NCBI RefSeq assembly: GCF_000280925.3
Contig: NZ_CP012109.1
Span: 558,001-622,000, forward strand
Source of the DNA: Myxococcus hansupus
Lineage (GTDB): Bacteria > Myxococcota > Myxococcia > Myxococcales > Myxococcaceae
Length of the DNA stretch: 64,000 nucleotides
Direction of reading: 5' to 3'
Both the position numbers and the translations under genes were made by a program. A model generated the notes under the pieces. That model was not told the origin of the DNA, did no database searches, and saw only the letters and a list, made by a program, of their open reading frames with translations. Positions 18,644 to 30,981 of the stretch are shown here, in pieces (within the stretch, counting starts at the first letter, position 1; every line of letters begins with the position of its first letter).

Positions 18644-19975
18644 CTAAAGGACATAGCCCTTGGCGCCCACGAGGATGGACCGGCTCTGCAATGCATTGAA
18701 TTCAGAGCGAGGGCTTCCGTGGTGCAGGACCCCCACCGCGAAGAAGGCCAGCCGTTCCCACACGTGCCACTCCCCGTAGGCGGAGGCCTGCCCGCTGCCG
18801 TCCACCAGGTTGAGCGAATAGCGCAGTTGCCAGATGGGGCCGGCGTCCGCCGGGTTGTTCTGCACCTGCAAGAACAGGTAGTGCCTCCCGAGCAGCGCGA
18901 GCCCGTTGTTGAGCGCGGTGCCCAGCGTCTGTCCCGCCAGCGGCGCATCCAGGGAGGGCGCCGAGAGAAGCGCGGAGGCCCTTGCCGCGATGTCGAAGTA
19001 CCGCGCCTCATCCGCCCACCGGTAACCCTCGTTGTTGGCGAGGTACTCCAGGGACACCGTGTGGCCTGAGTTCAGCGTGTAGCCGCCTCCAACGAGGGCG
19101 GAATAGAAAAGCCTGCCGTCGGCGGCATGGCGGGGAACGAACGCGCCCCCCACGGGGGTGGGCCGCGGCTCCGGGTACAGCGCTGGCGTTCCCTGCCGCA
19201 GCCCGGCCTCCGCGTACACGAGCAGCGCCTCGTTGACGGTGGCCTGGGCGAAGGCGCCGAAGCGGGGACGCTCATGGGCCCACCGTTTCGACGCGTTCAC
19301 GCTCGCGACATAGACGTCCGCCGTGTAATCCACCTTGAGCAGCGTCAACGCCCTGAAGCCGTCGTCCCGGTCCCACTGCCAGCCTCCGCGGCCGTCGCCC
19401 CATTGGTGCATCAGGGAAACGGACAGCGCCTGCGAGGGCGCCCAGGTGGCCTGCGCCATGTCCACGCCGCGAAGCTCTCGCAGCGGGATGATTCGGCCGT
19501 TCTCGAAGTAGATGGGATTGCTGGGCGAACGGAAGTTGGATGGCCCCCAGGTCAGGATGTCCCTGCCCGCGGACAGGGTGAGGGATTGCGCTGGATAGAG
19601 CGTCACCGTCCCCTGATTCAGCCAGGCCTCCAGGTGTGTCTCCGGCTTCCCATTCCCAAAGCGGAACCATTCAAAGCGGGCGCGAGGCTTCACGCTCAGT
19701 TCGAACGCGTTCAGGCTGAGCTTCAAATCCAGCCGTGCCTCCAGCTCCGTCTGTCCTTGGGAGAGGCGGGCGACGCGGTTGTTGGGATTGAGCAGGCTGT
19801 TCGTCTGAAGCCCTCGCTCGGTGTCGAGGGCGAACACCTGGAGGTTGGCCGAGCCCTGGTCCAAGAGTCCCTGGAGGTCCTGGGCCTTCGCGGTGTCTCC
19901 AAACCCGCCCGCCAGCAGGCCCAGGAGCAACGACAGGCCTGCCGGCGGTGTGACGGTGAATCGTCTGGCGCGCAT
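18644..19975 (-). CDS. Outer-membrane beta-barrel protein ending the lipid/polyketide export operon
   Basis: A 443-residue protein with a signal peptide (cleavage near AKAQD, about residue 31) followed by many amphipathic strands with Tyr, Trp and Gly, as in outer-membrane porins. A segment SAGRDILTWGPSNF recalls the GR..WG motif of DUF1302 and related barrels; I place it only loosely with them. It begins five bases after the LolA-like gene and is the last gene of the 14-gene operon. Next to an inner-membrane ABC transporter and a periplasmic LolA-like carrier, it would complete a route for a hydrophobic product to or through the outer membrane. That role is inferred. Confidence 0.7.
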   Translation of the reverse strand: MRARRFTVTPPAGLSLLLGLLAGGFGDTAKAQDLQGLLDQGSANLQVFALDTERGLQTNSLLNPNNRVARLSQGQTELEARLDLKLSLNAFELSVKPRARFEWFRFGNGKPETHLEAWLNQGTVTLYPAQSLTLSAGRDILTWGPSNFRSPSNPIYFENGRIIPLRELRGVDMAQATWAPSQALSVSLMHQWGDGRGGWQWDRDDGFRALTLLKVDYTADVYVASVNASKRWAHERPRFGAFAQATVNEALLVYAEAGLRQGTPALYPEPRPTPVGGAFVPRHAADGRLFYSALVGGGYTLNSGHTVSLEYLANNEGYRWADEARYFDIAARASALLSAPSLDAPLAGQTLGTALNNGLALLGRHYLFLQVQNNPADAGPIWQLRYSLNLVDGSGQASAYGEWHVWERLAFFAVGVLHHGSPRSEFNALQSRSILVGAKGYVL

Positions 19976-19980
19976 ACCAC

Positions 19981-20724
19981 TCAGTTCCCGAGCCGGTTGA
20001 CGTCGAACGTCCCCCGCGGCAGCTCCGCCACCTGCACGTCGGAGTACTCCAGGGTGGTCTTCGCGGAGGTGAGCGCGTCCTGGATGGTCATCCTGCTCAC
20101 GAAGGGAAACGTCTTGCCGTCGTGGCTGAGCTGGTTGGCGTACTCGAAGGTGGCGGACTTCAGCCGCTTCCCGGACAGGGAGATGAAGTCCGCCTTCACG
20201 CCGACGTGCCGCGCCTTGGACACCCAGTAGGTGATGCGGTCGTAGGTGCAGAACGTGTTCACCGCCGTCAGCTCCAGGACGTAGGTGGCCTCGCCTTCAA
20301 TCTCCTCCTCGCGCAGCAGCTTGGCCTTGTAGTCGGTGGCGTAGTTCGTGGATGCGATGTCCCCTTGTGACGCCTGCCCGGAGAGCTTCTGCCTGGGGGA
20401 GATGGGGATCGGCTTGCGGAGTCCGGGACGGCTCATCCACATGTTCCGGTCCACTTGCAGCAGCTTGGAGCCCTTGAAGCGCACGGGCTCGCGCGTCTCC
20501 GCGAGGCTGGCGGTGGCGTGGGCCTTCAGCAGGAGCACCCGCTCGGGCTCCGCCTCCGCGCCGTTGACGGGGGTGATGCGGACCGTCCACCGGATGCCTG
20601 GAAGTCCTCCGCCGCGTGCGCGGTCGGATGTCTTGAGAATCTCGGCCGCGTCCGGCTCCGTGGCGTGCGCGGAGCCGGAGAACAGGAGCAGCCAGCCCGT
20701 GACGAGTGCAAGAGCGTGTTTCAT
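19981..20724 (-). CDS. LolA-like periplasmic carrier (outer-membrane lipoprotein-sorting family)
   Basis: A 247-residue protein with a signal peptide (residues 1-21, GSAHA cleavage) and the pattern of LolA_like sorting proteins: an early AAEILKTSDRARGG helix, a middle QVDRNMWMSRPGLRKPIPISP beta region (partly quoted), an SNYATDYKA-type segment (STNYATDYKA here) and YWVSKARHVG. The fold is a half barrel with a hydrophobic pocket that ferries acylated cargo across the periplasm. It lies 19 bases after the permease and five before the barrel protein, so cargo handed over by the ABC transporter is likely. It is probably specialised for the operon's own product rather than general lipoproteins. 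Confidence 0.82.
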   Translation of the reverse strand: MKHALALVTGWLLLFSGSAHATEPDAAEILKTSDRARGGGLPGIRWTVRITPVNGAEAEPERVLLLKAHATASLAETREPVRFKGSKLLQVDRNMWMSRPGLRKPIPISPRQKLSGQASQGDIASTNYATDYKAKLLREEEIEGEATYVLELTAVNTFCTYDRITYWVSKARHVGVKADFISLSGKRLKSATFEYANQLSHDGKTFPFVSRMTIQDALTSAKTTLEYSDVQVAELPRGTFDVNRLGN

Positions 20725-20743
20725 GAGGGTGTCTCCCACGGCT

Positions 20744-30171: not shown

Positions 30172-30191
30172 GGTGTTGGGTTTCCTTGCGC

Positions 30192-30695
30192 TTAGCCGCC
30201 GCCGAGCATCAGCTCGCCGTCCGCGGCGAGTTCGTCGCCCACACGTGCTTCGACTTTCACGTGATGGAGGCCGCCAAGGCTCTTGAGATGCGTGGCCCGG
30301 ATACGGAGCTGGTCTCCGGGAAGGACGGGACGTCGGAATCGCATTCGCTGGATGTTGGCCATCAACCCCGGACGGGCCGGCGCCGATGACGTCTGTCTTT
30401 CAGGCACTTCGGCCACGCGGGGCCGGGTGCGCAGCATGACCCCCGCCACCTGGGCCATCGCCTCGACGATGAGCACGCCCGGCATGATGGGGTGCTCGGG
30501 GAAGTGCCCCTGGAAGAACGGCTCGTTCACCGTGACGCATTTGACGCCTTCGGCGAACACGCCGGGTTCCAGTTGGTCGACGCGGTCGACCATGAGCATG
30601 GGATAGCGGTGCGGCAGCAGCCCGAGGAGTTCTTGAATCCCCAGCGAGGTGGGCGCCGCGGACGGCGCGCTAGGCACAGGCGGCCTTCTTTCCAC
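30192..30695 (-). CDS. 3-hydroxyacyl-ACP dehydratase FabZ-like
   Basis: A 167-residue hotdog dehydratase with both catalytic elements: His in LLPHRYPMLMVDRV and Glu in PGVLIVEAMAQVAG. FFQGHFPEHPIMPG is the usual FabZ signature. A 15-residue insert (about 95-110) separates the last two parts. The GTG at 30695 puts the start inside the 3' end of the ACP gene; a GTG at 30677 would also work and removes six residues that precede the conserved part. It acts after FabG to form enoyl-ACP. Confidence 0.9.
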   Translation of the reverse strand: MERRPPVPSAPSAAPTSLGIQELLGLLPHRYPMLMVDRVDQLEPGVFAEGVKCVTVNEPFFQGHFPEHPIMPGVLIVEAMAQVAGVMLRTRPRVAEVPERQTSSAPARPGLMANIQRMRFRRPVLPGDQLRIRATHLKSLGGLHHVKVEARVGDELAADGELMLGGG

Positions 30696-30981
30696 CTTCC
30701 GCGAGCAACCGGCTCACCAGCGCGGCGAGCGTCTCGATGGAGTGGAACTCCTTGGCGACGCTGTCATCCGCGATGATGACGCCCCACTTCTCCTCGATAC
30801 CCACCACGATCTCCAGGGCCTCGACGCTGTCGAGCCCCAGCCCGCCGGCCTCGCCGTCCTGCGAGTCACTCCCGAACAGCGGTGCTCCGTCCGGGATGCT
30901 CTCCGGCTCGATGTCCAGCCTCAGGCGGTCCACGATCATGACCTTCAAGCCGCTCTTCAGTTCCGTGCTGTCGGTGTGCAT
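30670..30981 (-). CDS. Acyl carrier protein, first gene of the lipid/polyketide operon
   Basis: A 103-residue ACP. The phosphopantetheine serine is Ser52 in GLGLDSVEAL, followed by the usual helix III (EKWGVIIADD). It is longer than FabF-system ACPs (about 80), with an acidic Gly-rich loop just before the DSV motif and a basic Lys-Lys tail. The ATG at 30981 has a strong GGGAGAGG site seven bases upstream. The 256-base gap to the divergent cupin gene must hold the operon promoter; I could not identify convincing -35/-10 boxes in it. Confidence 0.93.
   Translation of the reverse strand: MHTDSTELKSGLKVMIVDRLRLDIEPESIPDGAPLFGSDSQDGEAGGLGLDSVEALEIVVGIEEKWGVIIADDSVAKEFHSIETLAALVSRLLAEGGKKAACA

What the first reader, a model, noticed from the sequence alone, without database searches (positions are those of the whole stretch)
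18644..30981. Fourteen-gene operon joining a type II ketosynthase system to a dedicated Lol-like export route
One nearly gapless minus-strand operon holds an ACP, FabZ, MBL hydrolase, two ketosynthases with two degenerate partners, FabZ-like, degenerate SDR and FabG, followed without a break by a LolD-like ATPase, LolE-like permease, LolA-like carrier and outer-membrane barrel. Aryl polyene clusters have a comparable logic (KS/CLF, KR, DH, ACP plus LolA-like genes) but use an RND/MMPL-type exporter and carry an ammonia-lyase or AMP-ligase start module; none of these is here. No acyltransferase gene is visible, so the chain may be handed over by the ABC transporter or attached by a distant enzyme. 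The candidate product is an envelope-located polyene or modified fatty acid.
Basis: partly seen in the sequence, partly recalled or inferred. Interest (0 to 1): 0.85.

Follow-up and report, generated by a model that had tools for sequence, protein, structure and literature searches.

The report
Myxobacterial lipid-maker operon with exporter
A block of fourteen myxobacterial genes appears to build an unsaturated, fat-like molecule with enzymes that come in working-plus-dead pairs and to ship it across the cell envelope by its own carrier route, a kind of module that related bacteria also keep beside other biosynthetic genes.

Summary
Fourteen minus-strand genes (18644-30981) form one operon. 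The block was found in 11 of 195 Myxococcota genomes searched: 10 of 27 in the window's genus, one in another genus; one copy is cut by a contig end. Flanks fall into about five groups. Each chain-building enzyme is paired with a paralogue lacking catalytic residues (KS1/CLF1, KS2/CLF2, FabZ/DH2, FabG/SDRx) in 11 of 11 copies, and dN/dS is 0.04-0.40. The export half (LolD-like ATPase, FtsX permease, LolA-like carrier, a beta-barrel without a Pfam family, modelled with an OprD/AlgE-type fold) belongs to a module found across the phylum. Outside the window's clade, 35 of 37 cassettes have no KS, PKS or NRPS-type hit nearby. Inside it, the other five lineages lie by a trans-AT PKS, a carrier-protein/thioesterase gene, an aldolase/DHQS II/AMP-ligase operon, KAS III-like pairs, and an MlaE lipid permease. 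Best reading: an enoyl-rich acyl product, released by the MBL hydrolase and exported by a Lol/Lpt-like route. It lacks defining parts of aryl polyene and aromatic type II PKS clusters and is too patchy for the general lipoprotein sorter. The substrate link is inferred; product chemistry is unknown.

The parts
30670..30981 (-). acyl carrier protein (ACP), 103 aa, LGLDS serine site
   Evidence: PF00550 22.5 bits, cut-off 20.8; serine motif in 10 of 10 copies seen
30192..30677 (-). DH1, FabZ dehydratase, intact GHFP His and Glu
   Evidence: PF07977; above both NCBIfam fabZ cut-offs; 11 of 11
29401..30171 (-). metallo-beta-lactamase-fold hydrolase, HxHxDH intact; probable release or cyclisation step (inferred)
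   Evidence: PF00753 E 1.3e-24; best PDB sequence match TM0894, then lactonases, PqsE weaker; metal motif in 11 of 11
28199..29404 (-). KS1, ketosynthase with Cys-His-His
   Evidence: residues in 11 of 11; beside ApeR in the tree, local support 0.970
27198..28202 (-). CLF1, degenerate ketosynthase; Cys is W (7 copies) or H (4), both His lost
   Evidence: longer frame; 11 of 11
26756..27205 (-). DH2, FabZ-like, catalytic His lost, Glu to Asp
   Evidence: NCBIfam fabZ 68-71 bits, below cut-offs; 11 of 11
26020..26769 (-). SDRx, degenerate short-chain reductase, Tyr and Lys lost, altered nucleotide motif
   Evidence: PF13561 (longer frame); 11 of 11
25250..26023 (-). KR, FabG-like ketoreductase, Ser-Tyr-Lys intact
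   Evidence: PF13561 E 8.5e-68 (longer frame); 11 of 11
23957..25192 (-). KS2, ketosynthase with Cys-His-His
   Evidence: above NCBIfam NF005589 cut-off, below the TIGR03150 fabF cut-off; 11 of 11
22701..23957 (-). CLF2, degenerate ketosynthase; Cys is N, both His lost
   Evidence: longer frame; 11 of 11
21967..22704 (-). ABC ATPase (the label LolD-like is recalled, not tested)
   Evidence: PF00005 E 5.1e-33 (longer frame)
20744..21970 (-). single FtsX/MacB_PCD permease
   Evidence: PF02687, PF12704; lolCE 70 bits, below cut-off 362
19981..20724 (-). LolA-like carrier; N-terminal signal-like segment judged by eye
   Evidence: PF17131 E 3.4e-34 (longer frame); sequence
18644..19975 (-). predicted outer-membrane beta-barrel, family without a Pfam model
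   Evidence: AlphaFold2 pLDDT 83.9, pTM 0.80; OprD/Occ and AlgE matches, best Z 23.8, rmsd 3.0 over 304

Best explanation
The operon is one biosynthesis-and-export unit. Malonyl units on the ACP are condensed by two KS/CLF heterodimers, reduced by FabG (probably as a complex with SDRx) and dehydrated by FabZ (probably with DH2). No enoyl reductase is encoded, so double bonds should be kept, giving a polyene-like or otherwise unsaturated acyl chain. The MBL hydrolase releases it or closes a ring. The ABC ATPase and a homodimer of the FtsX permease lift the hydrophobic product from the inner membrane, the LolA-like protein shields it across the periplasm, and the OprD/AlgE-type barrel passes it into or through the outer membrane. 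Shown: gene content, synteny, lost and kept catalytic residues, selection, module composition. Predicted: the barrel fold. Inferred: complexes, chain type, release step, direction and substrate of transport.
For: Gene order kept in 11 of 11 loci while flanks differ between about five groups. KS1/KS2 keep Cys-His-His and CLF1/CLF2 lack all three in 11 of 11. DH2 and SDRx have lost catalytic residues in 11 of 11. dN/dS 0.04-0.40 for all genes in six pairs. No AMP-ligase, acyltransferase, MMPL or enoyl reductase gene seen in the block. The barrel family recurs with LolA/FtsX/ABC across the phylum. Relatives in the window's clade lie in a trans-AT PKS, beside a carrier-protein/thioesterase gene and an MFS gene, in an aldolase/DHQS II/AMP-ligase operon and beside KAS III-like pairs.
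Against: No product is known. Outside the window's clade the module is mostly free-standing (35 of 37 cassettes) and may move ordinary lipids or lipoproteins; PF17131 itself is common (145 of 189 genomes). In the clade, L065 lies near an MlaE lipid permease, not a pathway, and the barrel profile found no barrel in L071 or L077. The enoyl reductase could come from primary metabolism, giving a saturated chain. The barrel model rests on 41 sequences, many about 20% identical to the window protein; a first model from 10 close copies failed. Deep nodes of the KS tree are weak.
Confidence: 0.55

Rival explanations
1. The synthase makes a special fatty acid (chain finished by the cell's own enoyl reductase) that is built into an envelope lipid or lipoprotein; the export genes carry that finished lipid, as proposed for aryl polyene lipids.
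For: FabZ is above the curated cut-offs and KS2 above one FabF-type subfamily cut-off; LolA-like genes are proposed to serve envelope lipids in the E. coli APE cluster (passages of PMC8253772); one clade relative lies by MlaE.
Against: No acyltransferase, glycosyltransferase or lipoprotein gene seen in the block, while the APE cluster has acyl- and glycosyltransferase genes and a lipoprotein gene. Two CLF-type subunits and a dead KR partner are not parts of primary fatty acid synthesis (recalled).
Confidence: 0.25
2. The four export genes are a lipoprotein or lipid sorter; their place behind the KS genes is historical.
For: Most homologous cassettes outside the window's clade are free-standing (35 of 37); one inside it lies by MlaE.
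Against: 11 of 11 copies keep the unit together, with differing flanks; absent from 17 of 27 genomes of the genus, so not essential; a better lolCE candidate lies elsewhere in the genome (220 bits against 69).
Confidence: 0.12
3. The operon is a variant aryl polyene or aromatic type II polyketide cluster.
For: KS/CLF pairs; LolA-like gene; in the tree KS1 falls with ApeR (0.970), and the partial-length ApeC falls with CLF1 (0.762, very long branch) inside a group that also holds CLF2 (0.925).
Against: No AMP-ligase, MMPL, DUF3261, acyltransferase, cyclase or aromatase seen; KS2 does not group with ApeO, and the aromatic KS and CLF clades (0.999, 0.985) hold no window gene.
Confidence: 0.08

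Closest known systems
Aryl polyene (APE) clusters, E. coli CFT073 apeA-R
   Same: Discrete KS, CLF, KR, two dehydratases, ACP, LolA-like carrier
   Different: APE has acyl-CoA synthetase, MMPL exporter, DUF3261 protein, lysophospholipid acyltransferase, glycosyltransferase and methyltransferase; here an ABC/FtsX pump and a barrel, two KS/CLF pairs, dead KR partner, MBL hydrolase
Highly reducing type II PKS (ishigamide Iga11/12 type)
   Same: KS/CLF with KR and DH and no enoyl reductase (recalled); 6kxd, recalled as an ishigamide-pathway KS, is among the PDB matches of KS1
   Different: No amide or NRPS part here; two KS/CLF pairs; export module attached
LolCDE-LolA-LolB lipoprotein sorting
   Same: ATPase, FtsX permease and a LolA-like carrier
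   Different: One permease, no LolB seen, a barrel instead; below lolCE cut-off; accessory distribution
Lpt lipopolysaccharide export
   Same: Logic: ABC pump, periplasmic carrier, outer-membrane barrel (recalled)
   Different: Different permease and carrier families; the barrel's listed fold matches are porins and AlgE

Membership tests
Aryl polyene cluster | aryl starter activation (AMP-ligase, ammonia-lyase) | tested here: not met
   no such Pfam family in the block or in the neighbouring genes scanned
Aryl polyene cluster | MMPL/RND exporter and DUF3261 protein | tested here: not met
   ABC/FtsX instead; the E. coli cluster has both
Aryl polyene cluster | KS and CLF of the ApeO/ApeC/ApeR lineages | tested here: inconclusive
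   KS1 beside ApeR (0.970); partial ApeC beside CLF1 on a very long branch (0.762) within the CLF1/CLF2 group (0.925); KS2 not with ApeO
Aromatic type II PKS | KS-alpha/CLF of the aromatic clade plus cyclase or aromatase | tested here: not met
   window KS/CLF lie outside the clades of the Streptomyces pair; no cyclase seen
KS/CLF pair (type II PKS minimal set) | KS with Cys-His-His next to a KS-like subunit lacking them, plus ACP | tested here: met
   twice in the operon, 11 of 11 copies
KS/CLF pair (type II PKS minimal set) | heterodimer formation | not testable with these tools
   only single chains could be modelled
LolCDE/LolA/LolB lipoprotein sorting | LolC/LolE permease by curated cut-off | tested here: inconclusive
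   70.1 bits against 362.45, but no gene of this genome and only 2 of 14 control genomes reach the cut-off
LolCDE/LolA/LolB lipoprotein sorting | general presence in the genus | tested here: not met
   10 of 27 genomes
Lpt system | LptF/LptG, LptA and LptD families by sequence | tested here: not met
   Pfam gives FtsX, LolA_like and, for the barrel, nothing
MacAB-TolC | MacA adaptor and TolC channel beside MacB-like permease | tested here: not met
   MacB_PCD 31.2 bits present; no adaptor or TolC family seen in the block
OprD/Occ or AlgE porins | sequence family membership | tested here: not met
   no Pfam match at E 10; fold alike only

The most novel reading that the evidence does not exclude
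The ABC-FtsX-LolA-barrel set is an unrecognised class of envelope-spanning export machine that myxobacteria plug into unrelated natural-product pathways. Here it serves a synthase in which condensation, reduction and dehydration are each done by a live enzyme complexed with a catalytically dead twin, including a pseudo-ketoreductase.
Probability: 0.4. Interest if true: 0.78.

Novelty: new variant of a known kind. Interest (0 to 1): 0.6.

Why it matters
How Gram-negative producers get hydrophobic polyketides and lipids across periplasm and outer membrane is poorly understood (recalled). A compact four-gene route, tied to one synthase in 11 genomes and lying beside other pathways in relatives, makes that question testable by gene deletion. 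The live-plus-dead enzyme pairs also give a genetic system for asking what pseudoenzymes do in synthase complexes.

Tried and rejected
Barrel model from ten close orthologues failed (pLDDT 29.1); the second job, with 41 rows, gave 83.9. In one search the two 'FabF_G021/G025' rows were read on the wrong strand and are ignored; repeat the comparison. Absence outside Myxococcota is therefore not proven. Plasmid records: no barrel match; the CLF2 matches in 869 records are all under 60% identity.

No empty site was shown: the best matches of two flanking genes (13535-15109, 34179-35513) lie at other places in most genomes, and I did not fetch those places. Pathway linkage, Fisher test: 4 of 6 lineages in the window's clade against 2 of 37 cassettes outside it, p 0.0017; without the window lineage 3 of 5, p 0.008; with the sister loci L086/L087 as one, 3 of 5 against 1 of 36, p 0.0036. 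It is post hoc and mixes lineages with loci. The criterion is a tblastn hit to KS, PKS or NRPS queries; the L069/L070 hits are stand-alone AMP-ligases. Of the 37, 29 are in the tree and 8 were fetched later and are not in it; 34 show two permeases; 31 stretches are 14 kb or longer; the 8 later ones were screened at E 1e-5, the others at 1e-6 and 1e-10. One search used a miscounted 39 and is replaced. Lower-ranked LolA hits were not fetched. L076, L082, L093, L104 and L106 were left out (cut by contig or fetched ends, cassette incomplete, or long-branched); the screen saw no KS or NRPS gene in them. L212 has a barrel without the other genes and was left out.

9s5h, the best PDB sequence match of KS1, could not be tied to a paper.
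Full report
Anatomy. The window is G000:C1:558001-622000 of a 9.49 Mb single-contig genome. Its genus holds G012, whose contig of 28,916 bases carries the block. One search names a contig of that length, with the block, Pyxidicoccus fallax DSM 14698; likewise G143:C90 (468,275 bases) corresponds to Hyalangium versicolor H56D21. 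Fourteen minus-strand genes run from ACP (start 30981) to a barrel gene (stop 18644); gaps are -14 to +57 bp. Upstream, a divergent cupin-like gene starts at 31118 and a MerR regulator at 32090. Downstream lies a carboxylesterase gene (17029-18486). It is next to the block in L038 too, but in L043, L044 and L045 other genes follow the barrel within about 60 bp, so I do not count it as part of the unit.

Conservation. CLF2 at 84-95% identity to the window and the full gene order occur in 10 of 27 genomes of the genus, the window included. A barrel search of 195 Myxococcota genomes adds one more, in another genus of the family; four further genomes match weakly. Ten copies are complete; in L038 the contig starts at the second gene. 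Six copies share flanking DNA with another copy (window, L038, L041, L043, L044, L045). L036 and L042 share only 104 bp with each other, and L037, L039 and L063 share none at E 1e-20 within the 1.5-4 kb available on each side. That is about five groups of flanks; strongly diverged flanks could look the same. In G002 and G010 the best match of a window flanking gene lies over 5 Mb from the block. The block, export genes included, therefore seems to travel or survive as a unit.

Synthase half. KS1 and KS2 keep Cys-His-His in 11 of 11. CLF1 has W (7 copies) or H (4) for Cys, CLF2 has N in 11; both carry Glu for the second His and have lost the first. DH1 is above the curated FabZ cut-offs. DH2 has lost the GHFP His and carries Asp for Glu in 11 of 11. 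FabG keeps its Tyr and Lys, while SDRx has lost both in 11 of 11. The MBL gene keeps HxHxDH in 11 of 11. Pairwise dN/dS is 0.04-0.40 for all fourteen genes in six pairs, ACP being unavailable in one, so the dead paralogues are under selection. In L036 and L042 the DH2 frame runs on over the start of SDRx. No gene for an enoyl reductase, acyltransferase, AMP-ligase, cyclase or MMPL pump is seen (two of the short-chain dehydrogenase genes match a Pfam model titled enoyl-ACP reductase, PF13561, a broad family that includes FabG; recalled). In a 54-sequence KS tree, KS1 falls beside ApeR (0.970). KS2 falls with two other myxobacterial KSs (L086, L204; 0.858). CLF1, CLF2, the degenerate partners in L086 and L204 and the partial-length ApeC form one group (0.925), ApeC beside CLF1 on a very long branch (0.762). 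Several deep nodes are weak.

Export half. The permease is a single FtsX/MacB_PCD protein. The carrier is PF17131, a family present in 145 of 189 genomes of the phylum. The barrel has no Pfam family in any of 10 members. With 41 homologues it is predicted at pLDDT 83.9 as a barrel closest to OprD/Occ porins (Z 23.8, rmsd 3.0, 304 aligned) and AlgE (Z about 22). A profile finds this barrel in most LolA/FtsX/ABC cassettes fetched, but not in L071 or L077, and also outside the window's class. In 37 cassettes outside the window's clade (34 with two permeases visible) no KS, PKS or NRPS-type gene was hit in the fetched stretch in 35; the exceptions are the sister loci L086 and L087. In a concatenated tree of 48 cassettes the window's module groups with L064, L069/L070, L065, L067 and L071/L077, plus the long-branched L106. 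L064/L068 lies in what I read as a trans-AT PKS, with a separate AT and ER-like gene. L067 follows an MFS gene and a carrier-protein/thioesterase gene cut by the contig end, so the assembly line itself is not seen. L069/L070 has two permeases and lies in an operon with LacD/DeoC aldolase, DHQS II, aspartokinase and AMP-ligases (Pfam was run on L069 only). L071/L077 lies by KAS III-like gene pairs, and in L077 ATP-grasp. L065, also with two permeases, lies near MlaE. Association test: post hoc.

Mechanism. From these facts I infer iterative condensation by two KS/CLF pairs, reduction and dehydration without enoyl reduction, hydrolytic release by the MBL enzyme, and export by ATPase-driven FtsX extrusion to a LolA-like carrier and a barrel. 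None of the steps was tested biochemically. The sigma-70 scan found one promoter-like site in 18400-31700 where shuffles give 0.4 (sd 0.6), so nothing marks an internal promoter.

Literature. The four papers found that hold LolA, ketosynthase, outer membrane and polyketide together concern aryl polyenes, a xanthomonadin-dialkylresorcinol hybrid and flexirubins (listing). For E. coli APE (PMC8253772, passages) export by RND protein ApeM with Lol-like ApeL and ApeN is proposed. Passages of PMC12419801 describe LolA-like genes in operons with lipocone-domain and outer-membrane barrel proteins, a different association. A 2026 survey of type II PKS in Myxococcota (PMC13213394: outline, passages and section 3.1) reports nine gene cluster families and no ABC exporter near the aggregicyclin genes; 'LolA' occurs nowhere in its main text. 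Searches gave no title or abstract start that describes this operon; the library is open-access only and I opened three papers.

Verdict. A real, conserved unit; a new variant of the KS/CLF-plus-Lol-like theme, with an export module that deserves a name of its own.

Noticed in passing
L203 (G026:C9) and L205 (G012:C21): Two genomes that carry the operon also hold KS/CLF pairs grouping with a Streptomyces aromatic type II pair (local supports 0.999 and 0.985).
   Followed up: partly
L069 and L070 (G137, G139): Operon (Pfam run on L069) with LacD/DeoC aldolase, DHQS II, aspartokinase, AMP-ligases and a reductase beside the same kind of export module; possibly an aminohydroxybenzoate-type pathway (recalled).
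   Followed up: partly
L064 and L068 (G126:C10:40001-65500): PKS of probable trans-AT type, ending in aminotransferase-like domains, directly followed by ATPase, FtsX, LolA-like and barrel genes.
   Followed up: partly
L071 and L077 (G017:C45, G143:C13): KAS III-like gene pairs and a MatE gene (plus ATP-grasp in L077) near a single-permease LolA module in which the barrel profile found no barrel.
   Followed up: partly
L031 and L032 (G033, G048): Other clusters with intact and degenerate KS genes, FabZ-like and SDR genes; L031 also has nitroreductase and radical SAM genes.
   Followed up: partly
window 33409-41485, minus strand: 4HBT thioesterase, thiolase, two CoA-transferase genes, two class III aminotransferases and an aldehyde dehydrogenase: looks like amino-acid (lysine-type) catabolism.
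   Followed up: no
L065 (G060:C12): An export module of the same clade lies near an MlaE-type lipid permease, hinting at a lipid substrate for the wider family.
   Followed up: no
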